Below, in pieces: positions 30,935-62,466 of a stretch of 64,000 nucleotides of DNA (its first letter is position 1; each line of letters starts with the position of its first letter). The stretch is from Proteromonas lacertae. Taxonomy: Eukaryota > Sar > Bigyra > Opalinata > Proteromonadidae. The DNA lies in assembly GCA_002245135.1 (NCBI GenBank), contig NGBS01001160.1, positions 310,001-374,000 of the forward strand. The letters run 5' to 3'. A program made the position numbers and the translations under genes. The notes beneath the pieces are model-generated. The model did no database searches, was not told the origin of the DNA, and was given only the letters and a program-made list of their open reading frames with translations.

Positions 30935-30944
30935 GAAACGGGTA
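30935..30944 (+). promoter_or_regulatory. GAAACGGATA-type promoter motif, site 1
   Basis: GAAACGGGTA (one mismatch to the shared motif) lies 15 bp upstream of the start codon of the minus-strand glycosyltransferase at 30920. Confidence 0.45.
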
Positions 30945-31002
30945 TATTTTTAATCATTAGTTTAAAGCCACATATAAATATATTAAATTATTAACAGACA
31001 GA

Positions 31003-32031
31003 TTAATTCATAAAATCATTTACTCTCTTTATTATAAAGTCTGTAAAATTATTCATGTCATTAAAATTTTCAACCATTTTCTTTTTGTTACAAGTAATAT
31101 TAATATTAATTTTGAATTTCAAATAATAGTTCCCATTTTCATGTGACACAAATGCATAATTTATCAATTTCAAATATCCAGAGAATCTTTTATCAGGATG
31201 TTTTCCTGATATATATATGACAGGTGTATTCATCGATATACAGGGTAAAATCGTGTGTAAATTACTTGTTAAAACCAAAGTTGATTTTTCATATATTTTT
31301 AATAATCTATATGCTTCATTGAATCTATCATAATGAGCGGTAGAATGTTTGAAATTCTTATTTAAATACATTATTTCACTAAAGTTGTAATACTTTAATA
31401 CTCTTTCATTCAAAAAATCCCATATTACATTTCCATCAATACAATTATCACAATTAACAATACATAATATTGTATCATTGATTTTATTTGCATAGTTATG
31501 ATATGATAAGCCCAACGTAAGTGTTAGACATCCACTAAAATATGCTTTGATTCCTAACGATTTTAGATAATTCATTGTTGATATATCTCTACAACCTATT
31601 GGTTCATGTTTTCTTAAATACCATAATGAAGAGTTGAATTTTTTATGTTGATTATCAATATGATAAGAAATATATAAAGGCATAATTCTCTCGGATGGAA
31701 AATATGTAGAATTTTGTAGATTCCACCATGCATTCATTATCATTTTAACTGGAGGACCATTATAATATCTAATAAAATCTCTATCAATATATATAACTTG
31801 CTTTCTACCACAAAAATATAACGAAGCAATAGATTGTATATAATCACCTAAATTTACATAATCAAATCCAGAATAAACAGAATCATACTCTTCTGTTTTA
31901 TCATCTCCATATTTGTATATCATTATTCCACAATATTCTTTGTTACTATCGCTATAATAATTTTCCTTACACTCAATACACTTTAGAATGATGAGAAAAA
32001 TGAGAATAAATTTTGAATGAAACGGATTCAT
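31003..32031 (-). CDS. Polysaccharide pyruvyl transferase family protein
   Basis: A single 342-residue exon with a signal peptide (FILIFLIILKCIEC). The order of motifs fits the polysaccharide pyruvyl transferase family (CsaB/WcaK type): FDYVNLGDYIQSIASLYFCG, MPLYISYHI, HEPIGCRDISTMNYLKSLGI and YFSGCLTLTLGLSY, then STLVLTSNLHTILPCISMNT. Members attach ketal-linked pyruvate to sugars of surface glycans (also used in fission yeast N-glycans). Together with the flanking glycosyltransferases and the FkbM methyltransferase it suggests a decorated surface polysaccharide or glycoprotein. The start overlaps the shared promoter motif, and the gene is divergent from glycosyltransferase copy 1 with only 16 bp between the start codons. 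Confidence 0.87.
   Translation of the reverse strand: MNPFHSKFILIFLIILKCIECKENYYSDSNKEYCGIMIYKYGDDKTEEYDSVYSGFDYVNLGDYIQSIASLYFCGRKQVIYIDRDFIRYYNGPPVKMIMNAWWNLQNSTYFPSERIMPLYISYHIDNQHKKFNSSLWYLRKHEPIGCRDISTMNYLKSLGIKAYFSGCLTLTLGLSYHNYANKINDTILCIVNCDNCIDGNVIWDFLNERVLKYYNFSEIMYLNKNFKHSTAHYDRFNEAYRLLKIYEKSTLVLTSNLHTILPCISMNTPVIYISGKHPDKRFSGYLKLINYAFVSHENGNYYLKFKININITCNKKKMVENFNDMNNFTDFIIKRVNDFMN
32019..32028 (+). promoter_or_regulatory. GAAACGGATA-type promoter motif, site 2
   Basis: GAAACGGATT lies 20 bp upstream of glycosyltransferase copy 1 (32048, plus strand) and inside the first codons of the divergent pyruvyl transferase (minus strand). Confidence 0.4.
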
Positions 32032-32040
32032 TTTATTGTA

Positions 32041-33267
32041 AATTGGGATGGCAATTTCATTCTATTCACTTTTGTTTTGGTTGTTTATATTCAATTTTAC
32101 ATACTGTTATAATGTTGACATTCCTGACAAGATTATAATAACAGCTGACTCAAATGTGTTTAAAATGGTAGAAAACTTCTATAATGAAGTGATATTGAAG
32201 TTTAAAGTTCCAAATTTTAGTGTGATAGTATGGAATAATTCATCCTATGAATTTTATAAAAAACACAAAATTCCAGTCGAAAACTCTCCAATTCCTACAG
32301 ATGATACAACAGCATATATTTAGTCATATGAAAAAACGTTTGTGATTAAATCAAAATTACGGAATGAGATAATCTTATATTATTTAAAACAAAATTTAAC
32401 AATATTAAACATGGATTCTGATTTATTCTTCTATAGAAATCCTTTAGAATTACTAAACTATATAAATGTTGATGATGATATAGTTTATCAATGTGATAAT
32501 CCTCCTTTGTGTAATGAGATGTGTTATGGATTATTTTATGTAAAACCATCAAAACCATCAATTAAACTATTTGAAAGAACAATAAATCTGGGAAAGATAA
32601 GTCTGCTTACTATGATTTATTCAGAACAACGATTGATGAATTTATTACTGAAATATGGTAGAATTGCAAATTTGAAATATTCAACGTTTTCTAAAGATGT
32701 TTTCCCTCAAGGTAATGAATATTTTGATGGTTTAGGAGTATTTGTAGATGATAAAAATATTCGAAATGTGATTGGATTTCATAATCATCATATTGCTGGT
32801 AGTCATTCCAAAATCTATCGATTTAAAGGAATTGGGAGTATGGAAGAATGATGAGAATGAATATTATTCATCAAAAACAAGAAAATATATAAAATATTCA
32901 ACAATAATTAAATCAAATTATAAAAGTGATTATGAATTATTGATGATATATTTAATGAATTTAGGAAAAGAGTTAAATCGAACAATAATATTTCCTAGAT
33001 TTAGTCATAGTATAAATAATGAAAGATATATTACAAATTTTATAAATTTTTGGAATATGAAATACTTTGAAGAAAGATATGGATTAAACTATCGAGAGAA
33101 TATATCTTTTTTGTTGTTTAATATAAATAAATAGAATAGTTTAGTTAATATTTGAAAGTATTTCTATTGAATGAATTAGTTCCAAAAGAAGTGAAAGAGA
33201 ATGTGAAAGAAATTTGTGATGAAAATGTAGATGAAATGAAATTATTAAATTCGTATTCAGTTTTATC
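32041..33267 (+). repeat. Direct duplicate, copy 1 (partner 42243-43471)
   Basis: About 1.23 kb that is nearly identical to 42243-43471 in the same orientation, 10.2 kb apart, with the TOR gene between. Identity starts at AATTGGGATG just before the glycosyltransferase start and ends at a shared TCAGTTTTATC; the flanks then differ. Two internal patches of about 20-45 nt are strongly diverged although the lengths are almost unchanged. Confidence 0.9.
32048..33267 (+). pseudogene. Nucleotide-sugar transferase-like gene, copy 1, decayed
   Basis: Same gene as the copy at 42251 (signal peptide FYSLLFWLFIFNFTYC, DSDLFFYRNPLELL with a DxD, FPQGNEYFDGLGVFV). It resembles the nucleotide-diphospho-sugar transferase family (PF03407 type). 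Two lesions mark decay. An in-frame TAG at 32321-32323 lies in a 45-nt patch that differs from copy 2. One extra G at about 32828-32829 shifts the frame so that the conserved ending (WKNDENEYYSSKTRKY) moves to another frame. The coding frame of the C-terminal third is otherwise well preserved, so decay is recent. Readthrough or a functional short form cannot be excluded from sequence. Confidence 0.75.
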
Positions 33268-33488
33268 AATAAATTATGTTATAAGAACTATCTCTGTTGA
33301 AGTAGTAAATAATTATATACATTATCTGTTGAAAGACAATATTTGGCAATATAGTTATATTTTCTAAATGTTGTAATTTGTTGAGATAAAAATTGGCAGA
33401 AGGTATTTCTATTTATTTTAATCAAATAATGTTATTTATTAATAGTTTTTCATTCAATTTATTGAATTATTCATTTTTAAAACATTCT

Positions 33489-33498
33489 GAAACGGATA
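33489..33498 (+). promoter_or_regulatory. GAAACGGATA promoter motif, site 3
   Basis: An exact GAAACGGATA 33 bp upstream of the chosen start codon (33531) of the FkbM-family methyltransferase. Confidence 0.5.
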
Positions 33499-33530
33499 AT
33501 TTTTATTATAATTTGGAACTTTTTGTTTTA

Positions 33531-34413
33531 ATGAATTGCTTTGTTTGTATTACTCTATTTATATTAGTACAAGCAACAGATATGTGGATTCCAAATCCTG
33601 TTAATTATAGTATTATAACAGAAGTAGAAGTTAAAGATAGAGGTTATGAAGAAGTAGAATTTCTAGTTAAACTTACCGACACTATTTATGAATATGATAA
33701 AGATTCTCGAAATTACCCGATAATATTAGATGTAGGAGCAAATATAGGAAATTTCACAATAGGAGTTGCACCATTATATTCAAATGCCAAAATCTATTCA
33801 TTTGAGCCATTCAAGTTAAGTTTAGACGTTCTTGTAGATAGAACTAGAGATTATGCAAATGTTGAAGTTGTAAATGAAGCTGTGAGTAATATAACCATAA
33901 TAAATCAACCATTTTATTCATTAACACATTGGACAACTCCTAAAAATACAATATCGTCCTTATTAGATAATCAACCAGGATTTCGAGTTAGTGATTATGC
34001 CAACCTAACCACCTTATCTGATTTTATGAATAGAAAAAGTATAAATAAATATGTTGTAATGAAATATAGATATATCAAAGATATTTTTCATAAAAATAGA
34101 CACAGAAGGTTATGATGGAACAATATTGGAAAACAGTATGAATTTATTCTATGAACATAAAATCAAATATTTATATTTCGAATATGGTAGTATGTGGCCA
34201 GTAGTAAATCCAAATATAAATGTTTTTAGTATTGTAAATGAACTAAAATCAGCTGGATATAATCTTTATTATGAAAGTAAGAATCATTTCATTCCTTTAT
34301 ATGATAAAGTATATTTTAATTATATGAACTATTGTAACATTCTTGCAATTTTAAGAGGTGAATCATTTGAAAGAAAAATGATGAATCGCTTATGTAAATT
34401 CTGTAAATATTGA
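33531..34413 (+). CDS. FkbM-family methyltransferase, secretory
   Basis: Start at 33531 gives a signal or anchor peptide (NCFVCITLFILVQA). The SAM-binding motif is plain: IILDVGANIGNFTIGVAPLY, then SFEPFKLSLDVL. The second FkbM hallmark, FFIKIDTEGYDGTILENS, lies in the next frame. A 25- or 28-nt intron (34053/34056-34080) with GT..AG joins both frames correctly (NKYV, then IFFIKIDTEG). It ends LFYEHKIKYLYFEYG and a basic C-terminus. FkbM enzymes O-methylate sugars or small molecules; here the neighbours (glycosyltransferases, pyruvyl transferase) suggest sugar methylation in the Golgi. FkbM families are widespread in bacteria and patchy in protists, so transfer is possible but old, given the intron. 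Confidence 0.82.
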
Positions 34414-34659
34414 AGAATATGTTTATATAATGAAATATATTATTGTCCTATTGACTTTGTTGATGAAATTCTCTTTCTACCACAATATCATAATAATGAT
34501 CGAAATAATTTCTTTTTTACTTACACTCAACATCTTTCAGTAAGATGAAAAACTCGAAAATCTTCTGTTGTATTTGTTTACATTTGGTTTGAAGAATATT
34601 TTTTTAATTTTTGTCATTTACAGTAATTTACATCAAAAATCTATTTCTTTAATTCTTGA

Positions 34660-35571
34660 ATGAATAAGAGGATATATTATTTGAAAGATGTTATAAATCC
34701 TGATGAGGAGGTGAGGCAGTCAGCTACGAAGAAGCTAAGAAATTTTATGGAAGTTACTAGTAGTTATTCTAGCCAGAGAAGAAGTAATGAAGATACGTGA
34801 AGATATATCAAGTGAATTAGTGACTCTTACTAATAGTAGTGATTATTATAAAAATCTAGGGGCTCTATGTGCAATTAAGGCATTATTGGATTTTTGTGAT
34901 CATTCCAACATTATTCCATATGCTAATTATGTTAAAAATATAATACTAAATGGAAATTCAACAACAGATCATCACTCAATAAATGAGTTTGCATGTGATG
35001 TATTGGGAGAACTTTTAACCAAATTCAGTGAGAATTTAATCGATTTTACTAATGAATACACACTTTCATCAATTCGTGATTTGAAAGAAGCAACAACTAA
35101 GAAAAAGCAGTATAATTCATTATGGCTTTTAAAGACATTTATTCAAAATTGCCCTTCACTATTCTATAACCAATTACCTTCATTTTTAAACAACATAACT
35201 AAACCATTAACGGATAATAATTCAGATATAAGAATAACTGCAGGAAAAACACTTTCATGTGTGGAAAAGCTACTAATTGAAAGACCAATCACAATAGAGA
35301 TAGAGAATTATTTCCAAATTATATACGATTTAGGATTAAACTTCAGTAATATAGCTTCATCATTAGAAATGACACATTCTTCATTATTAATATGGAAATG
35401 TCAAATAGAAAATAAAATACCAATTGTTTATAATCACTATGATATAATGTGTGATAATATATTGAAATATGCAGGTCATGCTAATCCACTGGTAAGAGAA
35501 ACAATTGTAGAATTAATTCCGTATTTGGCTGAATTAAATCCTGATTTGTTTTTAACTTATTATGAATCATC

Positions 35572-35610
<39 letters not shown>

Positions 35611-38600
35611 TATGTATATTTGAATAGTATTAATTTAATTATGTTTTCATTAAAGTATTCTGTTGATCCTACACTGATTTATATTTCATTTGGTAAATTG
35701 CTATTATTATTACCTATGAAATTACAACAACCAATGATGATAGAAAGAAAACCAAATATAAATGTTATAATAAAGTTTTTACAACATATTAAATCTGCAA
35801 TAAAAGAACGAAAGTAATATATATTATTATCATTATTGTTATTTAGATCATATTTTGAAGGAGCATTACAAAGTCTAGAGTTATTCAGTAAATCACCAGT
35901 ATCATCACAATATATTCATACTTTTATACCATTAGTATATATATATTTATTTATTTATTATCTATAGTTTACTGAATTACCTTTATCTACTGAATTAATA
36001 TCAACTCTCTGTGTAATAAGTACTAATATTCCATCTATCAAGAAAAGTATTGAAATGTTATTAATTGAAAGATTATCTCGTGTATTAGTACCTATTGATA
36101 TGAATAATCATTCAAAAATTGGATTTTCATCAAATTCTAACACTCAGAATGATATTTCTATTTGTTTGCATACTTTAAAGACATTTCCATTTAGTGAACT
36201 TGATAATATATTATACATGCAGAAAATACAACAATATTTAATATATAATGATTGGAAAATACGAAAATCAGCAGCTTTAGCTATTATAAAGTTGTATATA
36301 ATAGATAAAAACAGTGATAATCCAAGTCAAGATTTGAAAACAATCATGTTTAATATAATAAAATATTTAATTCCATTAGCTTGTACTGATCCAGAAGGTG
36401 ATATTAAATATGTGTTATTAAAAGAGTTAAACAATCCAAAATTCTACAGTTACTTAGTGCAAAGAGAATATAATATTCCTTTATTCCAAACAATCCAAGA
36501 TGATGATTTAACCGTCAGATTATTAGGTTTACATATTATTGAGAAATTACTACCAATTAATCCATTATATATGATCATACATATAAGAAGGTTATTACAT
36601 CAATTATCTTCAGAAATCCAATGTAATATTCAAGGATTAGAAAAAGAAACAACTATAACATTATTAGGAGAAATTATAAAGTCTTGTTCTGCTTATGTTC
36701 ATCCTTATTGTCAACCAATTTATTATATAATGACGAAACAGTTGGAAATATCTGAAAGAGGACCAACAATTACTGTAATATTGAATGTATTGGAGAATAT
36801 ATTGAAGATTGGATATGTTAATATATCTGATACATTTGAAGGATTATTCAGTAAAGCGATTGATTGTTTAAGGAAACAAATATCCAATGAAACAAGTGCA
36901 GCTGCTTTGAGAGTGATTATACAGATTACAATTAAAGAAAAGTATTTATAATTATTGTATTATATAATATTGTATAGTTTTGTAATAAAACCATATTACG
37001 ATTATGAAGACTTCTATCCGTTGTTATTGACAATAGCAAAAAGTTCAAAATATGATTTAAAATTAAGAACATTAGCTGTTACAGTATTAGGTAAGTTAGG
37101 TTTATTAGATCCATACAAATATTCATTATTAGTTGATAAACAAACAACAGAATCAATAGAAATTGATTATTTATCTGCAATATCACCAGTAAAGAAAGAA
37201 GCAATTTATACTGAAGTGATTATAAAGAGTTTATTGAAGTTATTAAAAGACAATTCAGTTTGTTCACATCATCATGAAGTGTTACAATCGTTTAGATTGA
37301 TATTTACAACGATGCCAAAAAGGTATATATAATATATATATTATATATTTACATATTAATAGATGTGAATCTTATTGGAATATTATATTTCCAGCATTAA
37401 TAGAGTTTGGTAATACATGTTTAGAATCAACAAGACCTCAACTATTCCAACTGTTTAGACATTTATTCGTTACAGAACCTATTGTTTCTAGAAGTTATTT
37501 ATCTTCACTGTATGAATTATTCTTTAAATATTGGAATAATACTATCAAAGAATGTTGTGAGTGTATAGTTGATACTTATAAAGTGTTACATTGTGATTTA
37601 TCCATTCATGCAAATAGAATTATTCAGTTATTACAAGAAACTTTAGAAAGTGATAATTCTCCAAACAGAATCACTTCTATTGAGTTATTAAACCTTATTC
37701 ATCCATTGATAAAGACATTATACTCCATAAATTGTGTTGTTTTATTATCACCATTGAAATACATTGAGATGAATATTAATTCATTAAAACCACCCTATTT
37801 AATAGCTCATTTAGGAGTAGTGAATGAATTATGTGAATATGAAGGAGTTGAAAGACATGCTATTTATATAGTTGAAGTGTTACTTACAATAATTGAGAAA
37901 ACAACTTCTAATGAAGTGGTAAAACAGGTAATGGAGTGTTTTATGCAATTAATTTATAATTTGAAAGAGAAATTTTATCTTTTTATTGATTCTATTGACA
38001 GAATATTAAAAAGAAGAAATATAATATACAAACCATATTCAGATTTAGCTGAAACAGTAAAACGAAGAGAAGTTATAATAAAACCACAATTAGTTAAACC
38101 AATACCAAGTGATACAGTATCTAAAAAAGAAACAAAGAAACAGAATCATTTCTTAAATTATCAAAAGTTATATGATGCATGGGTTTGTACTAATAAAGCT
38201 ACACCAGTATAATATATATATATAATATTTTATTTATTTATTCATTTTATAGTCTGATTTTACACATTGGTTAAAGAATGTTCATATGACATTTCTCTCT
38301 GAAAGTCCACAGCCATTATTTCGTTTATGTAGAATCAGTTATTATCCATTTGCAAGAGATATGTTTTTTCTTACATTTGATGCATGTTGGGATCAGTTAG
38401 ATATTCCGCAGAAACAACAATTTAGAGAACAAATAAAGTATCTATTTAGCTGTTCAACTGTACCAAATGATGTATTGATAAATTTATTATCTTTATTGGA
38501 GTATTTTAATAGAACAGATAGGGTATATTACTTTCTATATATTACTCTATTATATAGCAATTATTAATTGAACAGCAAACTATTGTTGATAAAGCAATTC

Positions 38601-38714
38601 AAGCCAAATCAAATGAAAAAGCAGTGAAATGTGCAGAGCAGTTATTCTTAGAGAATCATAATAATGTTGATTCATTAATATTTTTATATAATCAATTGAA
38701 TTATACTGATTCTG

Positions 38715-38752
<38 letters not shown>

Positions 38753-41700: not shown

Positions 41701-42141
41701 AAATGATTCAGGTAATAATGAAGATAATGAAAATGATGGTAATATAAGTGATAGAGATTCTTCATTAAGTAAAGATTCATTTGCGTTTCATGAATTCTTT
41801 AATAATCCAAGTGATACTAGTACAGGAAGTACATTGAGTTATAGTTCTTTAACTTCGAGAAATAGAAGAATGTCAGTATCAGCTGCAGTATATGATGTTG
41901 CTGATGAAAAACGTATATTATATATATATATGATTTATGTTTATTTTATTAGATCATTCGTTGAAAGAGATGGATCATCAAGCTATAAAAGTGTTGAGTA
42001 GAATTCATTCAAAGTTGACAGGAACTGATTTTCCAAATGCAGGTTTTAGATGTTCAGAAACAAGTGGATAGATTAATAGAGGAAGCAACATCTCCAGTTA
42101 ATTTATGTCAATCTTATATTGGATGGTGTCCATTCTGGTAG
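34660..42141 (+). CDS. TOR: Target of rapamycin (TOR) serine/threonine kinase
   Basis: About 13 exons encode roughly 2,340 residues. HEAT repeats fill the first half, starting [19 protein letters not shown]. Then come FAT-domain blocks ([56 protein letters not shown]), the FRB region ([15 protein letters not shown], 40.43-40.72 kb) and the kinase: [17 protein letters not shown], catalytic loop [14 protein letters not shown] and HIDFGDCFE with the DFG aspartate. The FATC tail reads [20 protein letters not shown] then CPFW. The first intron (34760-34781 or to 34784) is only 22-25 nt; two others are (TA)n-filled. Near 42027-42048 the frame must advance by one base to reach FATC, and no normal intron fits. 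TOR is the growth kinase of TORC1 and TORC2. Confidence 0.96.
35573..35607. repeat. (TA)n run inside a TOR intron
   Basis: An uninterrupted TA dinucleotide run fills most of the 56-nt intron 35572-35627. A similar run at 38718-38750 fills the intron 38717-38774. Such introns can change length freely by slippage. Confidence 0.85.
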
Positions 42142-42242
42142 ATAATATAATGATATTTTAATTCATTTCCTTTCTTTTTGTCTTTATTATTTAAATTAGA
42201 AAAATATATTCGTTTTCATTGCAACGAATATAATATATTATA

Positions 42243-43471
42243 GAATTGGGATGACATTTTCATTCTATACTCTTTTGTTTTGGTTGTTTATATTTAATTT
42301 TACATACTGTTATAATGTTGACATTCCTGACAAGATTATAATAACAGCTGACTCAAATGTGTTTAAAATGGTAGAAAATTTCTATAATGAGGTGATATTG
42401 AAGTTTAAAGTTCCAAATTTTAGTGTAATAGTATGGAATAATTCATCATATGAGTTATATAAAAAACACAAAATTCCAGTCGAAAACTCTCCAATTCCTA
42501 CAGATGATATAACACCAACATATAATATTGATGATCCTAATCTAAATAGAAAGTTAAGACTTCGAAATGAGATAATCTTATATTATTTAAAACAAAATTT
42601 GACAATATTAAATATGGATTCTGATTTATTCTTCTATAGAAATCCTTTAGAATTACTAAACTATATAAATGTTGATGATGATATAGTATATCAATGTGAT
42701 AATCCTCCTTTGTGTAATGAGATGTGTTATGGATTATTTTATATAAAACCATCAAAACCATCAATCAAACTATTTGAAAGAACAATAAGATCTGGGAAAG
42801 ATAATTGCAGTTGTATGGTTTTATTCAGAACAACGATTGATGAATTTATTACTGAAATATGGTAGAATTGCAAATTTGAAATATTCAACGTTTTCTAAAG
42901 ATGTTTTCCCTCAAGGTAATGAATATTTTGATGGTTTAGGAGTATTTGTAGATGATAAAAATATTCGAAATGTGATTGGATTTCATAATCATCATACTGC
43001 TGGTAGTCATTCCAAAATCTATCGATTTAAAGAATTGGGAGTATGGAAGAATGATGAGAATGAATATTATTCTTCAAAAACAAGAAAATATATAAAATAT
43101 TCAACAATAATTAAATCAAATTATAAAAGTGATTATGAATTATTGATGATATATTTAATGAATTTAGGAAAAGAGTTAAATCGAACAATAATATTTCCTA
43201 GATTTAGTCATAGTATAAATAATGAAAGATATATTACAAATTTCTTAAATTTTTGGAATTTGAAATACTTTGAAGAAAGATATGGATTAAACTATCGAGA
43301 GAATATATCCTTTTTGTTGTTTAATATAAATAAATAGAATAGTTTAGTTAATATTTGAAAGTATTTCTATTGAATGAATTAGTTCCAAAAGAAGTGAAAG
43401 AGAATGTGAAAGAAATTTGTGATGAAAATGTAGATGAAAATGAAATTATTAAATTCGTATTCAGTTTTATC
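42243..43471 (+). repeat. Direct duplicate, copy 2 (partner 32041-33267)
   Basis: The better preserved copy of the 1.23-kb duplication that brackets TOR. It begins just before the glycosyltransferase start and ends at the same TCAGTTTTATC as copy 1. See the copy 1 entry for the diverged patches. Confidence 0.9.
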
Positions 43472-43503
43472 TATAGATTGTATTCCAAAAGCTTTATCAA
43501 ATA
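42251..43503 (+). CDS. Nucleotide-sugar transferase-like protein, copy 2
   Basis: A signal peptide (FYTLLFWLFIFNFTYC) leads to a compact GT-A style domain: NRKLRLRNEIILYYLKQNLT, DSDLFFYRNPLELLNYINVD (DxD), GLFYIKPSKPSIKLFERTI. The frame then shifts; a 19-nt GT..AG segment (42810-42828) restores it exactly into QRLMNLLLKYGRIANLKYS, a block typical of PF03407-type transferases. The frame continues through FPQGNEYFDG to a TAG at 43335-43337. Further coding-like sequence (VFLLNELVPKEVKENVKEIC) follows in another frame up to a TAA at 43501-43503, shared with copy 1, so the gene probably has one more exon whose junction I could not define. A 19-nt intron would be at the extreme low end even here. 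Confidence 0.72.
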
Positions 43504-43709
43504 AAACATTCAATGAATACAAACAATATTTTTATGAAGATTCATTTATTCAAGATAAATATGTATGATTTTATATAATATAGTAACCTAATTTATTATC
43601 ATTATTATTATTATTATTTGCTTATTCTCATCAAATCTTCTGTTAATTATCATATTAATAAAAATGTATATTTTCATTTTATGACATTGTCAATGTCAGA
43701 ATTATAAAA

Positions 43710-47869: not shown

Positions 47870-47940
47870 CAGATTAAAAAATTTCTAGAAGGCTTGTTGA
47901 TGGTTTGATTCAAAAACATTTTGAACAAAAAGTATTATAA

Positions 47941-50005
47941 TTAATATAAGATATTTAATATTATATCCTTAACTACTAAATACCAAATAATGAACTGTGA
48001 AAGACTTAATCCTGAAGTGAAAAATGACAAAAATCCGTTTAATATAAAGTGTCTTTGGTGCATTAATTCCTTATATGGCTTATACAACAATACCAGCTTC
48101 AATATTTGTGAAATGATAAAGAATATATTTCGCTTATACATATATTCTAAATGATACATTCTACTGAAAAACACAATGTATATTATTCCTGGAAGGTAAA
48201 TAGACAAATAATTCAATGAGTTGGTTATATTTGTATCTAAATCTTGAACAAAGTAACTATATTTAAACGGATAAAATTGTCCAAATATTGGAATTGATAT
48301 AGAGAATATCTTTTTACCATAATTTAGAATTGTAAATGGAAAAACTGGTTGAAATAACACAAAAACAAATCTAAATAATCTATATCTTGGATTTACATTG
48401 AATAATATTGTTCGATAGAAGTAATAATATAATAATGAGGAGATGATAGGAATATTACTTAAGAACAAAGGTAAACTTAAAATCTTAATAAATGAAGTAT
48501 GATATAATATCAAATCAACTTTATCAAATTCCAAATCACTTTTTAATTCACCTCTGCTTAGTAATACATAATACATAATGTTAGGAATAATATAGGATAA
48601 TAATAAAACAACAAAATACACTTTCAAATATGTATTTCTTAGTTGATTTGGTGTTCCAATAAGTTTAGTAAATTGAATAGCTTTTCCTTGTGGGAAGTAG
48701 ATATTTTCATCATATGATAATGTAAATAATTGAGTATCATTATTACACTTATTATCAATATTACACGAGATTATAGATATAGAATGATTATAAATAGAAT
48801 GATTAATACTATGATAGTAATCATAGTTTATTACATATAAGGGACTTTCATTGTTTTTATTATTGTTATATTGTATTAACTCATTATCAATATAAATATC
48901 AATAGATTTAATAGGTTTCATTGAAAATAAGAAAAATCTTATTTCATTATAATCAACTGTATGATTTGTATGTCTAAATGGGAATAATGCATTAGGTGGT
49001 GATGTAATTATAGTGATTGGACATTCATATGTTTCATTAAAAGAAATATCTTTAAATCCAATTCTTCTTTGATCAATAGCAATTATACGATAACTATACA
49101 AACATATATGTAATTATTATACTGTTTAATAAAACCCCAATCTAATGCAGCTAAATCCCAATTTGGATATTTATCTTTATTGTAATACTATTCATTAATA
49201 AAAGAACATTAAAATATACAAATAAATTCTTTCCAATTGTATCATGAACATGTCCAGATAATACCAAATCAATTTCATTCTTATTTATAACATCTCTTAA
49301 ATCTTCACTTCTATTTTCAGGTGATAAAGGATTTAAAAACATTATAGGATGATGAGTTAACATGACTTTAAAATCAGCTTGCTTGTTACTTATTTCATCT
49401 AATAATACACATTTATTATGATCGCTAGAACCATAAATACATAATGGTTCGATTGAACACTTTGGAAATGTGGAGAAAAATGTTGAAAATGCATATTTTG
49501 ATGATGGAGTGGTTATATCAAAACCATACATGATTGATCTATTATACTTTCCACTGATTGAATATTTGTCGAAATAACTGTTGTATTCTAATTCAGTAGT
49601 ATATGTATCATGATTACCACGAACATCAAACCAGAATTCTGGATTTGTCAAGTTGTTATCTTCTAATCCATTTCGATATAATTGCCATTGTGATTCAAGC
49701 TGAATATCTATAGATAATTAGATACTATTTAAATACTTGGCTCATAATTATCTTTACTATCACAACTATCTCCTGTGTTAATAACAAACTTTGGATTAAT
49801 CTTTGGAACTACTTCGCTTAAGAATTTTCGCCAGTAATTGTCTTGCTTATCTCCTGATACGCCTCTCAAATGTATATCTGAAATGTGAATAAACCAAAAA
49901 GAATCATCTTCATCTATTCACAATAATGCAATTGACAATACTCTTTAGGTGATAGTAATCATGGCACAAACAGAATGAGAAAAAGAAAAGCAATATAAAA
50001 TTCAT
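47941..50005 (-). CDS. TMEM62-like membrane phosphoesterase, copy 3
   Basis: Five exons. The start at 50005 gives signal peptide MNFILLFFFSFCLCHDYYH. Metal-binding motifs: ISDIHL, NTGDSC, VRGNHD, THHPIM and SGHVHD. After a beta-sandwich-like segment (CPITIITSPPNALFPF) the C-terminus has about five membrane helices and ends IVKDIILNILY. All splices keep phase, with no unexplained break. It sits head-to-tail with copy 2 (71 bp apart), while copy 1 is 37 kb away on the other strand. The lumenal phosphoesterase fold suggests a phosphate-ester substrate in the ER, Golgi or outside; no substrate can be named. The promoter has an exact GAAACGGATA 32 bp upstream. Confidence 0.88.
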
Positions 50006-50036
50006 TACAGAAGAAATAGAATATTCTTTAAATAAT

Positions 50037-50046
50037 GAAACGGATA
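50037..50046 (+). promoter_or_regulatory. GAAACGGATA promoter motif, site 4
   Basis: An exact GAAACGGATA on the plus strand, 32 bp upstream of the minus-strand start codon of TMEM62-like copy 3 (50005). Confidence 0.5.
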
Positions 50047-50132
50047 TATGTGTTTTTTATATTTCACCCTTTATAACACAACCTAATATACTACAAAAGT
50101 GTATAGAAGATGTAATTATAACTTTGTATTCC

Positions 50133-51844: not shown

Positions 51845-52158
51845 TATTATTCCGTTAAAACTAATGTAAGCTAATCTTTTGTTAATATTATCTAATTAAG
51901 CAGAAGTATAATTAATTTAATACCTAAAGTTTAAAGATGAAATATTTATTCTATTCCAACCAATATATCAACACTTGTCGAAATATAACCCCGAAAATAC
52001 TACAACCGAATTAATGAGAATTTCGGATTCAAGCCATTTTCATTCAAGCTTTTATAGATAACTTTTTAATTACACAACAAATGAGAGATTTTATGATTTG
52101 AATATATCTGTTTATTACCTTATTTTCAGAAAACAGTATAAATAAATATATTTTTAAT
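51845..52158. other. Intergenic stretch, no feature recognised
   Basis: 314 bases holding the upstream region of the zinc-finger gene and the downstream region of the FYVE/ARM gene. It is A/T-rich; I see no open frame, repeat or RNA gene. Confidence 0.5.
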
Positions 52159-54327: not shown

Positions 54328-54873
54328 GTATAAATAGCAATATATGGATTATTAAGTAATAAATGATAAATAGAAAGGAAGAAAAATAAACAGATTAAAA
54401 ATCTTAGAAAAGCTTGAGTATGTCAAATTTGTTACTTTACATTTGTCAGTAAATGTAATTTTGTTGTTATTCTTTCATTATAATCATTCAGTTATATAAC
54501 TGATTTAAACAGTTTTAGCTAATTATAAAACATTAATCTAACGTACATTTAATTACATATGCTTTTTTATTATTTAAATGACGATATATTTATCACTTTT
54601 CTTATCATTATTTTTCATGTAGTAAAATTACTAATAATATTCAATTTGTTGTTACAGCATCATTTTTATCTTAGTTATAAAGAGTTATTTTGCAAATATA
54701 TTTTTAGCTTAAATACCCATAGTATTCCGGAAAGTTGCATTTTGAGTAAGTGCTCAACTTTTGAACGCGGCACTTCTAGCCATTTTTAAGCTCTAATATT
54801 GAAATTTCATTGGCTTTTTTTAATTAAACTAAACTATTCTGAGAAGTATTTTATGTTTCTACTACATCATAGA
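54328..54873. other. Gene-free flank left of the foldback element
   Basis: About 550 bases upstream of the FYVE gene. Short open frames here (for example 54559-54789) have random, Phe/Leu/Ile-heavy composition and no homology I recognise. No repeat or RNA gene seen. Confidence 0.5.
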
Positions 54874-55511
54874 TTTGTGCGCCGTTGTCATAAGTGGCCA
54901 TTTGTCAACCAGACACTTTTAAAACAAACTAAATGTATATTCTTACTTGTCTTGATGAAAAATTGTTACTTTTATACTTACTTTGTTATATGACCTACCT
55001 CTGCAGTATACTTTTTTGTTAATATAAATAGTTTGAATATTTGATGCCGTTTGTTTTCTAGAAATTTTTGAAGCAGAACTAAATGCATATTTAGCTAATA
55101 TAGACTGAAATACATTAGCTGAAATGATTAGAATGTAATAATTATTAAATCTTTCTATATAAAAAAGAAATGTAAAAAGTAGGCTTAAGTGAGGCTTGAT
55201 TATGTATTTTCTTTTTTCATTTTAAATGTCTTATGATCTACATTAAGTTGTTCTAATCATTTCAGCTAATGTATTTCAGTCTATATTAGCTAAATATGCA
55301 TTTATTCTGCTTCAAAAATTTCTAGAAAACAAACGGCTCAAATATTCAAACTATTTATATTAACAAAAAAGTATACTGCAGAGGTAGGTCATATAACAAA
55401 GTAAGTATAAAAGTAACAATTTTTCATCAAGACAAGTAAGAATATACATTTAGTTTGTTTTAAAAGTGTCTGGTAGACAAACGGCCAACTATGACAAACT
55501 GCGCACAACAA
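54874..55511. mobile_element. Long inverted-repeat (foldback/MITE-like) element
   Basis: The left arm (about 54874-55134) is the near-perfect reverse complement of the right arm (about 55251-55511), separated by a ~115-bp spacer. The outer ends read TTGTGCGC on the left and GCGCACAA on the right. Inside, blocks such as ACCAGACACTTTTAAAACAA, CCTCTGCAGTATAC and GATTAGAA pair in mirror order, with only scattered mismatches. There is no transposase-like open frame, so if mobile it is non-autonomous. It lies in the only long gene-free stretch of the window. I found no convincing target-site duplication at the borders. Confidence 0.85.
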
Positions 55512-55953
55512 TAGAAGATCATCAGGAACAATTTGATCATCTTAGGTACCAGTCTATTGTACATAATATCTGTACACTAGATCTCCAGTTTTTTCTATTC
55601 TAATCTCTCTATTTAGAGAGAATACTTGAAAACAAATAAAATAAACACAAGCCAGGTTTGAACATTTTTTCATGTTTTATAAAATTTGAGCACCTGCCTC
55701 CTATAGGAAGCTAGGTCTTATTTTTGTTAATTAATTAATAAACACTATTATTTTTTAAACTGTTTGACTTATTTACTATCTGAATAACTATCTTAAGCTC
55801 TATTTCAATCGTTTATCCCATAAAAACAATTTAACTAAATCATTAAGACATATTTATTTATAACTAACTGATAATTGAACCTTTTTCATAAAAAACAAAT
55901 CATTCAAGTAAATTTTGGCAATCTTGATATCTATTCGAGGAAGTCAACATATT
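55512..55953. other. Gene-free flank right of the foldback element
   Basis: About 440 bases of unremarkable sequence between the inverted repeat and the small minus-strand gene. No open frame of protein-like composition. Confidence 0.45.
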
Positions 55954-56221
55954 TTACATCTCCATAGCTTCTACTATTGCTAAATTATCACCTTATTGAA
56001 CATAATTTACTTACATTTATTAAACTACTAGCCATTGGATAAGTTAAGAATTTAGAATTATCTACTTCTCGTTTTATAATCATGAATTTTGATAATTTGC
56101 TTACTAAATCATTTCTTATATCTACAACGAAGTTATCTCTATTGAATTGTAATTGATATACTTCTACTAATCTTTTCATATATTGTAAAACTACTTCTTT
56201 TATATTCAATTTACCTCTCAT
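55954..56221 (-). CDS. Small basic helical protein, unknown
   Basis: Starts MRGKLNIKEVVLQYMKRLVE. The first ~65 residues look like a compact helical, basic domain ending FLTYPMA. From there a plausible intron leads to a second short exon ending IVEAMEM with a TAA at 55954-55956. Without that splice the frame runs to a TGA at 55988. No family recognised. The composition (no low complexity, regular hydrophobic spacing) argues that it is real rather than chance. Confidence 0.5.
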
Positions 56222-56409
56222 GATTTAGCTTTGAATATCTCAGCTTTTATAACCATTCTTTTACATCGATAGAAAATGTTTAAGTGAATAATGGAAGGCA
56301 CAATGAAAGGCACAAACAGTTCTTTATTCATCATCCAAATAAATTAATTAACCTTTAAGATGATTTAAACTATATTCTAGGATAAATCCTATTTGTTTCA
56401 ATGACATTG

Positions 56410-57564
56410 TCATATTATCATTATTATGATTTTGAAAATAGGATATACATATCCATTATACAATGACCGATATAAAGTTGGCTTATTTTTAAACTTATAC
56501 TTATCATCATATCCTTCATCATATGTATTAGGATTAACATTATGAAATAATGAAAATAACAAGAAATGTTTATAATTTAATGAATAACTATAACACATAA
56601 AATCAGTTATAAAAAATGTTCCTATACATTCAATGATTAAACATTTTGATGATAAAATCCATATCATATTCGTTAAACCAGATCCATGAACACTTATTAT
56701 TATTTTAGATTTCATTATTGATTCAATTTGTTCTTTAGGGACTTTTATCTTCAAAATATATTTCATTGTAATTATATTTCATTGATTTGATCATTTCTTT
56801 TATCATCTCTAGATTCGTTATACTTCTGATTCTTCCTTTCACTTTTCGACTTATTATTGATATTAAATTTTCTTTTTCTTTTACATTTTCTTTATTTATT
56901 TTATGTATTTATCCTCATCTCGATATGTCGACCTTTATTATAATTACGAAATATTCCTACCAAATCACCAATTTGCACTTCGAATATAAATATGAACAGT
57001 TTTATAACATAATAAATGATTTTTGGATTTTCTTAATAGTTTAGATATTTCTGATTGAAATGATATCTTAAATGGTTTATTATAATTATTTATCATCATT
57101 TTCAACATCATATTATTATAGGGAATTGTAGATTGTGGATTAAAATCAGCCATTATAAGATGATTCATTGGAGGATATTTATTATCATTTTGAATATTAT
57201 ATAAAAACATATTATCCAAAAAATGAGATATCATTTGATTAACATGTGATGTTGTTAAATAAATTTCTTCATTTGAATATTCATAGGATGGATTTCCTAT
57301 CAGAAAATTCGGACCAAAAATAAATCTCCAATGATGATTATGTAAGTTATTTATTATTAAATTGTATTCATTCATTTCTTTTATTGACATTATTAATCTT
57401 CCCCAATAATCATCTTCTTTTCTTGTTATACAAATATTGTTAGCAGTTATCCAATAATTTCCAGATTCTTTTACCAAGTCTTCATGAAAATCAATTGAAC
57501 TATATTCACAGTATATATATTTAGAGAGAATGAGAAAAATCAATAAAATATTCATTTTAATCAA
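56410..57564 (-). CDS. GT61-type (EOGT/XYXT-like) glycosyltransferase
   Basis: A signal peptide (KMNILLIFLILSKYIYC) and N-terminal region lead to the conserved C-terminal core of family GT61: IISRKVKGRIRSITNLEMIK, then SKIIISVHGSGLTNMIWI. That HGSGLTN block is the family signature. Four frames are used. A 31-nt intron can bridge the first shift and a 43-nt intron the second (joining NYNK to ENVKEKEN). The third shift, at about 56733-56742, is one base and is not explained by a normal intron. The enzymes add xylose, GlcNAc or similar sugars to glycans in the ER/Golgi. It is divergent from the next glycosyltransferase, with 39 bp between starts and one shared promoter motif. Confidence 0.78.
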
Positions 57565-57574
57565 ATCAAATCAT

Positions 57575-57584
57575 GAAACGGATA
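57575..57584 (+). promoter_or_regulatory. GAAACGGATA promoter motif, site 5
   Basis: An exact GAAACGGATA lies between two divergent glycosyltransferase genes, 11 bp from the start of the minus-strand GT61 gene (57564) and 20 bp before the plus-strand gene (57604). Confidence 0.5.
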
Positions 57585-57603
57585 CATATTTAATTAAAAA
57601 GAA

Positions 57604-58698
57604 ATGTTAAATTTACGACTAATCTTTACATTATTTTTCATAACTTACTTAAAACCGCAAACTTCACTTTTTATTTTTAATTATTTGTTAGTTATATTGT
57701 TAAATGTAAAAAGAATAGAATGTAAAGAAATAGAAGTGTATGTTACTCCTCATAGGGAATTTAAGAAGTATGATGAAAAACTATATATTAGAAACAATAT
57801 ATCATATCTAAAATATGAATCTGATGAAATAAAATCAAAAGATTGTGTTGTGATATCTTTAGCTTATAGCTATACATATAAGGATATTAGCACATTTATT
57901 CTATCTCTTAGAAAGTATTATGAAGGTGACACTATTCTTTTCATAAAAGAAGAAGATTATTCTTCCTATTCTGAATATATTGATAAATATAAATTAGAAT
58001 TGATTAATATTACATATAATTCTCCATTTTATTCAAATAATAATTCGCTATACAAATTTAATCAATCAGAATTATCAGATATTCCACTTTATTCATACAA
58101 AAATTACTGGCCAACATTTCGTTGGTTCATTTTCGACAAATGGCTAAGTAAATATGGATATCTATATAAGTATTATTTAATTTGTGATGCAAGAGATGTA
58201 ATATTCCAAGACAATCCATTCAGATGGAATATTAGTGAAGGAATATATTTTGGTGAACAAACAAGAGGATTTGAAATTAGTCAAAATCAACCTAATACTG
58301 AATATATGTTTTATTACAAATATGGATATAAATATGTTGATAATCTATTATTAAATGCAGGAGTAATGTTTGGTAAAAGAAAGACAATAATTGATTTTTA
58401 TCAACAATTTACAGGTTTTTTAAGAGAAAGATATATAAATACAATTGATCAAGCAGCATTGAATTATTATCTATATTCATATGGATATAAACACTTTCCA
58501 GTGTATATATGTCAAAATGAAAATGGTCCAATTCGAACTTTGCATATAGATTTCATGCTAAATAAATCAAATGCTTATCCTAAAAGTGATAATTACATAT
58601 ACAATATAGATGGATCAAAACCTATGTTAATTCACCAATATGACAGAATGATTAATAAATATGAAGAATATATTAAATATCACACAAAAATAGTATAA
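57604..58698 (+). CDS. Secreted/Golgi glycosyltransferase-like protein, paralogue
   Basis: A single 364-residue exon, paralogous to the gene at 29850-30920. A hydrophobic N-terminus (LRLIFTLFFITYLKP plus a second hydrophobic stretch) suggests a signal anchor. Shared motifs, in order: ISLAYSYTYKDISTFILSLR, YLICDARDVIFQDNPFRWNI (DxD region), LLLNAGVMFGKRKTI, TIDQAALNYYLY, and the ending YNIDGSKPMLIHQYD. Sequons are frequent. The DARD motif and Asn-Ala-Gly strand fit a GT-A nucleotide-sugar transferase; don and acceptor sugars are unknown. The intronless structure is unusual in this window. Confidence 0.78.
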   Translation: MLNLRLIFTLFFITYLKPQTSLFIFNYLLVILLNVKRIECKEIEVYVTPHREFKKYDEKLYIRNNISYLKYESDEIKSKDCVVISLAYSYTYKDISTFILSLRKYYEGDTILFIKEEDYSSYSEYIDKYKLELINITYNSPFYSNNNSLYKFNQSELSDIPLYSYKNYWPTFRWFIFDKWLSKYGYLYKYYLICDARDVIFQDNPFRWNISEGIYFGEQTRGFEISQNQPNTEYMFYYKYGYKYVDNLLLNAGVMFGKRKTIIDFYQQFTGFLRERYINTIDQAALNYYLYSYGYKHFPVYICQNENGPIRTLHIDFMLNKSNAYPKSDNYIYNIDGSKPMLIHQYDRMINKYEEYIKYHTKIV

Positions 58699-58728
58699 TA
58701 GTAATTGTTATGTTTTTATTCTTGTTTA

Positions 58729-61700
58729 TTAAATGCATAAATATGCAATTATTAATAATTCTATAACAATTATCCCTATCATTATCACAGCAACTCCATT
58801 TGAGAAATATCTTACAGGAGATCTAATAAAATTAAGAAATGTCTGAAGTGTCTATAAACAAAAGAATATAACAAGAATAATAATACATTTGATTTTCTAC
58901 TAAATAATTCCATTTTAATCCAAAACAAATTTCTTATTTTACTCAATATTAAAATCATCCTATTTCCATATTGATTTTTACTATCTTCATTTTCTAATAA
59001 TTCATTCAAATATTTATTTGCCAATGAATAATCAATGCCAACACCATATCCATTACTATACATATAACTCAAACTATAAGCACTTTCCAAATTACCAAAT
59101 TTATAAGCATGTAAATACATTTCCAATGCTTTTTCATAATAACTATGTGTTATATTTGTTTGCTTATCAATGTATCCTTTGTAATAAAGATCTCCAAGTC
59201 TAACACAATTGATAATATTACCTTTAATACATGATCTGTTCAAATAACTTTCACTTAAATTGAATAACATTTCTTCATTATTAATCAAATTCTGATTGAT
59301 TATTAAGTACTTATTTGATAAAATAAATCCACTATTGTGAATTGAAACATCAAAACCAAGTTCACTACTTTCAATATAATGTAATAAACTACTTACATAA
59401 TCACCATCAATATATCTTTCAAATCCTCTTCTTATAATCTCAGATATTTTACTGTGATAATAAGCAGTCGATTTCAAAAATCTATACATAATGATGTAAA
59501 ACAAACACAATATACTTAAGTGAATTTTCAGCATTTCTTTTAAAAAATTTTCCTTTATACAACTGTTCTCCCATGACAAAACAACCTGAAAATGATTGAT
59601 ATTCTAATGCAGCTCTTAACATATAGTTATATGCTTTATCATAATCACATCTAGTTCCAACACAATTCAAATACATAAAACCAGCATTGTATAATGCTTC
59701 TCCACTATTATACTCCACAGCTTTTTCAAAATATTCAAGAGCTTTAGTGAAATTTTGTTCTACATCTTCTCCTTGATAATAAATATATCCCAAACCATTA
59801 AAAGCTCTTGTTAAATTCTATTAATCATATAAATATGTTTATACCTTCTTTGCAGCTTTGTTATAATATTCCATTCCAGCAGTTACATTCTTTTCTACTC
59901 CTTCTCCCTAAATGATAATAAATAATCTAAATACTTTAATTAATAATCCAGCTAAAGCTACTTCACCAACTCCATTTCCTAGATTTGCAGCTTGTCGATA
60001 ATAATTATAAGCAATATTCTGATTTCTAATTAAACCTCTATTCCCAAAATAATATAAATCACCTAAAGTCAACATTGAATCAACATCACCCTATTATTAT
60101 TATTATTATATTCACAATTATTTGTATATACATTTGTAGCTCTAAATTTATGATATTGAACATATTCATCATCTTCTCCTCTTTGACCTTTATCAATATC
60201 TTTCACTGTATCTTCAGTAATCAAATCTACCTCATTGCGAGGTTGTTCTCCAACTGTTTCAAAAAGATTTCTTGATTCTTTTGCTACTTCATAATAATAA
60301 AAGAGTGTAGTTTCAATAGCATTAGGTTTATTCTCATAATAATTTGCTAAATAAAGATAAGCTCCATTATATCCCTGTAATGCAGCATAGTAAATACTTC
60401 CAATATTTATTGGTATATTATCTATAAAACTATGGAAAATTAGTTATACACAAAACATATTTCAATTTAGTCAATAACCAAACTGATCTTCCATCTCCAT
60501 TATTTGCTGCTGTTTTAATCAATTTATATCCTCTTTCAATATCTGGTTTAACCCAATACGTTTCAGCTGATAATATATAAAAGAAATATATATATACATT
60601 TAATTCCACATTCTCCATATAATAATATTTCACCTAATAATCCAATTGCTGGAGTAAAATTGTATGAAACAAGACTTTCTAATTCACTCAATACATATTC
60701 TGGATCATTACAGGATTTATACTTTTCTTTGACTGTCTATTATATTACTATAATATTGAGTTTTATACATCAAATGATTCTATTTGCTTTGGTAATAATG
60801 ATGGTTCAACATTGAATTTGTTTGTACAAAGCTGTATGTTTGATAATTCATCAGAATGCTTAGATCTATCCAATCAAAATGTAAGAAATAAATACAATTC
60901 ATATTGGTAATTACAATTTATCATCGAATAAGATAATACACTATTATAAACATGAATATATCCAATATATCCAGTTATTCCTAACATATATGGACTTCCT
61001 CCAATCATCATTGGATCTCCATTTGGTATAACATTTGGTATTATGAAAGAAACATCTCTCTTTCCATTTACATAGCTTGTAATTAAATATGATGAATTGT
61101 TATTGTAAATATCAACAGTAAGAGTATAGTAATACCATTGATATGGTTCAAATATATAATTTGAATTACTTCCTGTATCATATGATTCATTATTTGTTAA
61201 TCTAATAATAGACTGCCATATATCTGGATAAATAAAGAATTCAGAAATTGTTCTATAGGTTGTACCATTACCTTTGTAGAACAATATCTTATAAATTGAA
61301 TCAGCTGGTTTATTCAAATACAACCAAAATGACATTGACCAACCATGATTATCCTATATATATTATTATAATCATCATAATAATACAGGAAAGGTAGTGT
61401 TTGGTAATGCTATATACTGATTTCCATTAAATGTAATTATACCTTCATTACTGTAAATCGATGGGTATGGACAAATTATATCTGATTTTGATGAATTATC
61501 AGATGATAGAATGTATTGATTTGCAGATGTGATAGTCAAAAGATTAGGTGATGTATAAACTACAAAGTATGATATAAATATATCAATATACTATAGGTAT
61601 TTGTGATATTTTGTAGAATAAAATCAATATAATATTGATTCTCATTCAATATTCTTATTTCTTTATATCCTTTCTTTGGTATAACATATCCTTGACAAAA

Positions 61701-62430
61701 AACTTCATTTTCATATTCCTTATAATATTTCTCTGTTATATTCACTACAGTAATATGTAAATTTTCACCACTTTTAAATGAAGAAACAACTTCATTATTT
61801 CCATTAAGGAATTGTATTTTCAAAGTATCATTATCATCCCATACTCCTATATAGTTTATAGCAAATGTTGGATTTAAATCAACAGTATTTTGAAGTGCTA
61901 ATCTGTTATCAATGTCACTCTTAGTGAATGTATCATAATGAGTAACATTACATTTGAAAGAAATAGTGATTATATCATAATCTGTTAAAGTTGTTTTTGA
62001 TCTAGTATTTTTTATGCTAATATCACCTATTTTTGCTTCTTTATTGGGAAAATCTTCATCACATGCAATTCCTGGATAGGAAGCAATAAGATTTTGATTA
62101 TCAGCTAAATCTAATAATGGAATATAATAATTTGTTTGATTTTCTAAATAATTACTGGGATATTAAGAATACTTATATCATGAATTCTAAAGAATGCTTT
62201 CTCAGTACATTCAACTGGAACTCTTAAATTCCATGATATATTCATCGCTTCATATGCATTAACTTTCAATGGATGAATTAATTGAATATTCAAACTAGTA
62301 CTGTTTGTTATATCTAAATTAGTGAAATCACTGTTTGAAAAAGTAATTTCATCGGCCTATTATGTTATAAATACATGAAGCATACTATACAACAAGCAAA
62401 TAAAAATAAAACAATTATAGAACAACACAT
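58729..62430 (-). CDS. SEL1L/HRD3-like receptor with LamG domain
   Basis: A large gene with many short introns; I model one transcript from the signal peptide MCCSIIVLFLFACC (Met at 62430) to a TAA at 58729-58731. The order is: beta-rich N-terminal part (62.36-61.56 kb); a LamG/concanavalin-like jelly roll (61335-60890: WYYYTLTVDIYNN, IGYIHVYNSVLS); ten or so Sel1 repeats (about 60.76-58.93 kb: ALEYFEKAVEYNSGEALYNA, RLGDLYYKGYIDKQTN, AYSLSYMYSNGYGVGIDYSL); and a C-terminal membrane helix (GVAVIMIGIIVIELLIIAYL). Signal peptide, Sel1 repeats and C-terminal anchor are the plan of SEL1L/HRD3, the ER adaptor that passes misfolded glycoproteins to the Hrd1 ligase. The LamG domain is not part of known SEL1L. 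Internal exon borders are approximate. Confidence 0.78.
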
Positions 62431-62456
62431 TTCAAAATTTTCGTTGAATGAAAATA

Positions 62457-62466
62457 TATCCGTTTC
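62457..62466 (-). promoter_or_regulatory. GAAACGGATA promoter motif, site 6
   Basis: An exact copy on the minus strand, between the divergent SEL1L-like gene (start 62430, 27 bp away) and DIS3 (start 62490, 24 bp away). Confidence 0.5.

What the first reader, a model, noticed from the sequence alone, without database searches (positions are those of the whole stretch)
30935..62466. A shared GAAACGGATA motif close to secretory-gene starts
GAAACGGATA occurs exactly at 33489, 50037, 57575 and 62457 (minus), with one-mismatch forms at 30935 and 32019. All six lie between genes and 10-35 bp from a start codon. They serve two glycosyltransferases, the GT61 gene, glycosyltransferase copy 1 and the pyruvyl transferase, the FkbM enzyme, TMEM62-like copy 3, and the SEL1L-like/DIS3 pair. 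At my rough estimate of base composition, well under one exact copy would be expected by chance in 64 kb. Housekeeping starts such as CFAP20, EF-Ts, UBC12 and CapZ-beta lack it. It may be a core or stress-responsive element of ER/Golgi genes. A weaker relative (ACAACGGATTG) precedes the kelch receptor.
Basis: partly seen in the sequence, partly recalled or inferred. Interest (0 to 1): 0.75.

Follow-up and report, generated by a model that had tools for sequence, protein, structure and literature searches.

The report
A genome-wide promoter-type DNA signal
A short DNA signal that looked special to a few secreted-protein genes is real, but it is one form of a longer 16-base signal that sits just ahead of many kinds of genes across this unidentified organism's genome, so it is probably a general promoter signal rather than a secretion switch.

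Summary
The four exact GAAACGGATA copies are where stated and are not chance (0.02 expected in shuffles). The decamer is one variant of a rigid 16-bp composite element, GAAACG-NN-TATATTTT. The window's own 50.2-Mb genome holds 509 exact copies against 1 for the reversed control. The 18 wider spacings tested together give only 108, about 6 each. Sites lie in AT-rich stretches close upstream of start codons, in either orientation: 19 sense and 18 antisense among the 37 of 65 unique sites outside the window that have an assignable start. The secretory link is local. In the window 8 of 9 adjacent starts encode hydrophobic N-termini. Elsewhere only 9 of 37 do, against 32 of 271 control starts (p = 0.066). 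Genes nearby include histone H3, CFAP97, a CAF1-family nuclease, a tyrosine phosphatase and a lysine methyltransferase. Other forms lie near 'housekeeping' starts said to lack it. Best reading: a binding site for a sequence-specific promoter factor, used by perhaps a few thousand genes of mixed function, orientation-tolerant and lineage-specific. The factor, the transcription start sites and the organism's name are unknown.

The parts
33489..33504 (+). Composite element, GAAACGGATAATTTTT, 32 bp (from the decamer end) upstream of the FkbM-like ORF start at 33531(+)
50037..50052 (+). Composite element, GAAACGGATATATGTG, antisense to the metallophosphatase (TMEM62-like) gene whose likely start is at 50005(-), 31 bp away
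57575..57590 (+). Composite element, GAAACGGATACATATT, between divergent starts at 57555(-) and 57604(+), 19 bp from each (measured from the decamer)
62451..62466 (-). Composite element, GAAACGGATATATTTT (full consensus), between divergent ATGs at 62430(-) and 62490(+)
30935..30950 (+).
32019..32034 (+). Composite element, GAAACGGATTCATTTT, 19 bp upstream of the start at 32048(+); also overlaps codons 2-4 of the pyruvyl transferase ORF starting at 32031(-)
42201..42236 (.). Head-to-head pair AAAACGAATATATTTT(-) and GCAACGAATATAATAT(+) upstream of the second glycosyltransferase copy, start 42251(+)
29759..29774 (+).
5288..5303 (+). Weak variant AAAACGGCTATAAAAA between the divergent kinesin (5243, -) and EF-Ts (5341, +) starts; low score, may be chance

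Best explanation
The feature is a double-stranded DNA binding site, consensus (T)GAAACG-NN-TATATTTT (NN mostly AA or AC, then GA and GG), recognised by one sequence-specific promoter factor or a rigid complex in a lineage-restricted way. It lies in the AT-rich gap immediately upstream of start codons, typically 10-60 bp away, facing either way and sometimes lying between two divergent genes, and it marks or opens the promoter, as general regulatory factors do in yeast. Shown here: the sequence, its genome-wide excess, the fixed 2-bp spacing (against spacings 3-20), an enrichment of start codons nearby on both sides, and the indifference to orientation. Inferred: that a protein binds it, that it acts in transcription, and that it marks or opens promoters. 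It is used by a functionally mixed subset of genes, roughly 4,000 sites by extrapolation, and is not specific to secretory genes.
For: Genome-wide: 535 exact decamers against 81 for the decamer read backwards; 509 GAAACGNNTATATTTT against 1; 774 GAAACGNNTATATT against 13. Rigid: 108 matches summed over spacings 3-20 against 509 at spacing 2. Flanks of 69 de-duplicated exact sites keep T at -1 (78%) and TATTTTT after the decamer, 54-72% per position. GC is lowest at the site and rises on both sides. ATG at 5-35 bp: 552 against 155 GTA downstream, 528 against 223 on the other side, baseline ratio about 1.5. In the de-duplicated sites ATG stands at 2.06 times the mean of five same-composition triplets at 20-40 bp sense and 1.72 at 0-40 bp antisense, against 1.15-1.18 at 100-300 bp. 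Starts are found on either side equally, 19 sense and 18 antisense of 37. Neighbour genes are of mixed function. A weight-matrix scan of 200 kb of contig C139 plus the window gives 26 hits above 14 bits against 4.6 in Markov controls.
Against: No protein, footprint, 5' end or expression datum was available. Raw ATG counts per 31 positions do not fall with distance (619 at 70-100 bp against 552 at 5-35); proximity shows only after normalising by composition. One of the five control triplets, TGA, rises near the site as much as ATG does, about 40% of it as part of ATGA, so the GTA ratio flatters the effect. Pattern counts include repeated gene families (24 of the 93 exact sites held were near-copies). 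Of 65 unique sites outside the window, 28 had no ORF of 40 or more codons starting within 90 bp. Coding sequence was detected less often beside sites than at random positions. Some exact copies lie inside genes, e.g. probably L084. The extrapolation to about 4,000 sites rests on one 200-kb contig stretch.
Confidence: 0.6

Rival explanations
1. A directional core promoter: TATATTTT is a TATA box bound by TBP, and GAAACG at fixed spacing just upstream is a TFIIB-recognition-type element, together placing the transcription start about 30 bp downstream.
For: Rigid 2-bp spacing between a GC-containing hexamer and a TATA-like octamer; AT-rich 3' half conserved in flanks; sense ATG/GTA ratio stronger than antisense (552/155 against 528/223).
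Against: As many genes start on the antisense side (18) as on the sense side (19). Six of 21 sense starts lie 11-21 bp after the decamer, too close for a transcription start 25-30 bp downstream of a TATA box: e.g. the secreted-type protein of L053 at 14 bp, window 57604 at 19 bp. Start codons are predictions from ORFs.
Confidence: 0.2
2. A secretory (ER/Golgi) or stress-responsive element.
For: In the window 8 of the 9 start codons adjacent to the six named sites encode hydrophobic N-termini (10-residue hydropathy peak 2.27-3.32; the ninth 0.35). Outside it the share is 9 of 37 against 32 of 271 controls, p = 0.066; one of the 9 is a doubtful antisense ORF at C139 196644.
Against: 28 of 37 sites outside the window are next to starts without such an N-terminus. 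Named genes nearby are of nuclear, ciliary, cytosolic and other families. In contig C139 2 of 16 matrix hits with an ORF start are hydrophobic. The window is a local cluster of secreted-type enzymes.
Confidence: 0.07
3. A chromatin or replication element (nucleosome-positioning, boundary or origin site) that sits in intergenic AT-rich gaps without directly driving transcription.
For: Orientation-free, AT-rich surroundings with a symmetric GC dip; these data do not separate it from a promoter factor site.
Against: Normalised enrichment of start codons on both sides points to gene starts rather than to intergenic DNA in general; gene 3' ends were not tested.
Confidence: 0.1
4. A remnant of repeats or mobile elements: the motif is over-represented because it is carried by copied sequences.
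For: Ten families of near-identical loci hold 34 of the 93 sites, several of them on small contigs.
Against: After removing near-copies 69 different contexts remain, and the excess is in a 16-bp pattern with two free positions, not in a longer repeat.
Confidence: 0.03

Closest known systems
Phytophthora INR+FPR 16-nt core promoter block (PMC3599244; abstract and section 8 read)
   Same: About 16 nt, two halves nearly always separated by a 2-nt gap, promoter-proximal, in a minority of genes (about 13% there), lineage-restricted.
   Different: Different sequence (the paper's commonest INR is TCATTCT, followed by a T-rich FPR), defined by mapped transcription starts. Here no starts are mapped and orientation is free.
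Entamoeba histolytica GAAC and GAAC-like core elements (PMC5842622; passages read)
   Same: Non-canonical protist promoter element with a GAA core; bound by TBP and TRF1 in vitro there.
   Different: AATGAACT and GAACTACAAA do not match GAAACGNNTATATTTT; the paper gives 56% of 4,000 genes with the GAAC-like box.
Yeast general regulatory factor sites (Reb1, Abf1, Rap1; recalled, only titles and abstract starts seen)
   Same: Long, well-conserved, orientation-tolerant sites in promoters of functionally mixed genes, often between divergent genes.
   Different: Different sequence; the factor here is unknown and nucleosome depletion is untested.
Trichomonas M3 / Myb recognition element (consensus recalled; passages of PMC5366954 read mention Myb recognition elements but give no consensus)
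   Different: The extended consensus with TATATTTT at fixed spacing, and A after GAAACG in 70 of 100 listed matches, do not fit the recalled M3 consensus.

Membership tests
TATA + BRE-type directional core promoter | TATA-like octamer at fixed spacing from an upstream GC-containing element | tested here: met
   509 at spacing 2 against 108 over spacings 3-20; spacings 0 and 1 not tested
TATA + BRE-type directional core promoter | One orientation relative to the gene, transcription start about 25-30 bp downstream | tested here: not met
   19 sense and 18 antisense of 37; sense start codons as near as 11-21 bp; transcription starts themselves not mapped
Yeast-type general regulatory factor site | Orientation-tolerant, promoter-proximal, many unrelated genes | tested here: met
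Yeast-type general regulatory factor site | Bound by a known factor and flanked by a nucleosome-depleted region | not testable with these tools
   no binding or chromatin data
Phytophthora INR+FPR | INR (TCATTCT-like) followed after 2 nt by a T-rich FPR at the transcription start | tested here: not met
   The element's sequence, in either orientation, is GAAACGNNTATATTTT / AAAATATANNCGTTTC (paper)
Entamoeba GAAC element | AATGAACT or GAACTACAAA | tested here: not met
   Consensus differs (PMC5842622 passages)
Myb recognition element | (C/T)AAC(G/T)G core recognised by a Myb-domain protein (recalled) | tested here: inconclusive
No protein tested
ER-stress or secretory element | Enriched at signal-peptide genes | tested here: inconclusive
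   9 of 37 against 32 of 271, p = 0.066; other thresholds 10 of 37 against 46 of 271 (p = 0.17) and 6 of 37 against 25 of 271 (p = 0.24)
ER-stress or secretory element | Induction by ER stress | not testable with these tools
   no expression data

The most novel reading that the evidence does not exclude
An undescribed bipartite core-promoter module, a GAAACG box rigidly coupled to a TATA-like box, that works in both directions and defines a promoter class of several thousand genes in a eukaryote lineage with no close named relative among the proteins searched.
Probability: 0.2. Interest if true: 0.6.

Novelty: new member of a known kind. Interest (0 to 1): 0.42.

Why it matters
Promoter signals are known for only a handful of divergent protists (my own knowledge). 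A 16-bp element with about 500-fold excess over its reversed control, a rigid gap and start-proximal, orientation-free placement gives a handle on gene-start annotation and on finding the factor that reads it. It also corrects the local reading: an apparent secretory code was one form of a general signal seen in a cluster of secreted-type enzyme genes.

Tried and rejected
Secretory specificity: tested with a hydrophobic-N-terminus measure against starts picked the same way at 688 random AT-rich positions, 271 of which had an ORF start; not significant at any of three thresholds. AT-rich random frames also look hydrophobic, so a plain eye count would mislead.

Coding-side classification: the first version (6-mers trained on the same ORFs) was overfitted and dropped. 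The codon-usage version showed coding pointing away from the site about twice as often as towards it on both sides (away 22% and 24%, towards 12% and 10% of 68 sites), but coding was detected less often next to sites than at random positions (32-34% each way), perhaps because first exons are short.

ORF-based gene starts in the background contig were too noisy for de novo motif discovery. GAAACG alone is not over-represented (46 seen, 38 expected in 264 kb): only the composite is.

Raw ATG counts at 70-100 bp are as high as at 5-35 bp, so only composition-normalised ratios are used; the triplet TGA rises near the sites together with ATG.

Organism: the TOR kinase domain has one 96% and one 61% unnamed hit, then 50-55% to fungi, animals, plants and others among the best 120. 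The FYVE-ARM protein has 92% and 52% unnamed hits and one weak further hit. The glycosyltransferase at 57604 has one unnamed hit at 71%. 18S searches did not complete.

Literature: the searches for GAAACG with promoter and motif (20 of 92 listed), protist core promoter terms (20 of 53) and CGTTTC with promoter terms (10 of 602) listed no title that describes this element. Only those listings were seen, and many subscription papers are not held.

Spacings 0 and 1 of the two halves were not tested. Letter variation inside GAAACG was looked at only with TNNNACGGATATATTT (91 against 8; mostly TGAA, also TGTA, TAAA, TATA and others).

Pfam scans: one search printed 34 coding-like pieces beside sites; I sent 22 of these, plus 8 first-exon pieces (one of them beside a one-mismatch site in C139, and one locus, L062, twice), 30 in all.
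Full report
What is there. The four exact GAAACGGATA copies are at the stated places and shuffled sequence gives 0.02. The site at 32019 overlaps codons 2-4 of the ORF starting at 32031 on the minus strand while also lying 19 bp upstream of the start at 32048. The window is a eukaryotic stretch of 27% GC from a 50.2-Mb assembly in 1181 contigs.

The decamer is part of something longer. Genome-wide it occurs 535 times against 81 for the decamer read backwards. I fetched 88 of the 100 listed places (one more lay in the background contig). Together with the window, 93 exact sites were held; 24 were near-copies of others and 69 unique contexts remain. Their flanks are not random: T before the decamer in 78%, and TATTTTT after it (54-72% per position). 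Searching the genome with the two bases after GAAACG freed and the 3' half fixed gave the key result: GAAACGNNTATATTTT has 509 exact matches and the reversed control has 1. In the 100 matches listed of 509, the two free bases are AA 39, AC 23, GA 12, GG 12 (many of the GG on small, repeat-like contigs), AT 4, AG 4, TA 4, GC 1, TC 1. The gap is rigid: all spacings from 3 to 20 together give 108 matches, about 6 per spacing, with a control of 59. Spacings 0 and 1 were not tested. GAAACG alone is not in excess (46 against 38 expected in 264 kb).

Where it sits. GC content is lowest beside the site (about 0.22) and rises to about 0.28 by 120 bp on both sides. Among 774 copies of GAAACGNNTATATT (control 13), ATG occurs 552 times at 5-35 bp downstream against 155 GTA, and 528 against 223 on the other side, where the ATG/GTA ratio of window and contig C139 is about 1.5. 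These count site-ATG pairs and include repeated families. The de-duplicated sites show the same more weakly: against the mean of five triplets of the same composition, ATG stands at 2.06 at 20-40 bp sense and 1.72 at 0-40 bp antisense, and at 1.15 and 1.18 at 100-300 bp. One of the five triplets, TGA, rises with ATG there (43 and 71 counts against 45 and 70), about 40-50% of it as ATGA. Raw ATG counts do not fall with distance (619 at 70-100 bp), because the sequence further out is less AT-rich. Of 65 unique sites outside the window, 37 have an ORF of at least 40 codons starting within 90 bp; 19 of these starts are on the TATATTTT side and 18 on the other. So the element is near starts but not oriented. 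That argues against an RNA element and against a plain TATA box, and 6 of 21 sense start codons 11-21 bp after the decamer leave no room for a transcription start 30 bp downstream.

Which genes. In the window, 8 of the 9 starts next to the six named sites encode hydrophobic N-termini (peak 2.27-3.32); the ninth, at 62490, does not (0.35). Pfam supports the pyruvyl transferase, one nucleotide-sugar transferase and the metallophosphatase; it gave no hit for the FkbM-like ORF, for the products of 30920, 57555 and 57604, or for the piece thought to be DIS3, and below-cut-off hits for Sel1 and EF-Ts. Outside the window the pattern does not hold: 9 of 37 against 32 of 271 control starts (p = 0.066), with p = 0.17 and 0.24 at two other thresholds. 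Of 30 protein pieces beside sites sent to Pfam (22 of the 34, and 8 others), 18 gave no family. The 12 with a match: histone H3, CFAP97, CAF1 nuclease, lysine methyltransferase, tyrosine phosphatase, BTB and EGF next to plausible nearby starts; a maltose-acetyltransferase cap beside a one-mismatch site; UFD1 and a chaperonin starting or matching some 160-220 bp away; an Hsp70 piece (L084) and a filamin piece below its cut-off (L090) whose frames run up to the site, so that the site there may lie inside the gene. In 200 kb of contig C139, 19 sites pass a 14-bit matrix score; of 16 with any ORF start of 18 or more codons nearby, 2 are hydrophobic. Within the window the second glycosyltransferase copy has a head-to-head pair of weaker forms, a good form lies about 100 bp upstream of the gene called UBC12, and a weak one, possibly chance, at the kinesin/EF-Ts divergent pair.

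How many. C139 has 19 hits where Markov controls scaled to 200 kb predict about 3.4. Extrapolated to 50.2 Mb this is near 4,000 sites. That is an estimate from one contig.

What it most likely is. A DNA site read by one factor or a rigid complex over about 16 bp, placed in promoters in either direction, in genes of mixed function. Functionally this is closest to the general regulatory factor sites of yeast (recalled); architecturally it resembles the 16-nt, 2-nt-gap block of oomycete core promoters (PMC3599244, abstract and section 8 read). It is a member of neither on sequence. The Entamoeba GAAC elements (PMC5842622, passages read) differ in sequence. Whether the TATATTTT half is bound by TBP is open. 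The literature listings I saw show no report of this element.

Limits. 

Noticed in passing
window 42201-42236; C139 186531-186571 (locus L027): Two head-to-head arrangements of the element (GAAACG ends facing, 4 and 9 bp between the decamers), one upstream of the second glycosyltransferase copy.
   Followed up: partly
window 32048-32851 and 42251-43337: Two nearly identical glycosyltransferase genes, both with the element or a weaker form of it just upstream.
   Followed up: no
L029, L034, L046 and their near-copies, mostly on small contigs: Repeated sequence families (for example a protein starting MSSNINNGSNFITLDD) carry the element at the same place; the small contigs look like copies of a repeated region.
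   Followed up: no
whole assembly G000: Three proteins of the window have their best matches (71-96%) only in unnamed read assemblies, with one relative at 52-61% for two of them; no close named relative was found, so the organism belongs to a lineage poorly represented in named databases.
   Followed up: partly
C139 129226(+) and 167177(-): A second repeated context, ctttttatGAAACGatatttt(t/c)aactgaaaga, occurs twice within 40 kb.
   Followed up: no
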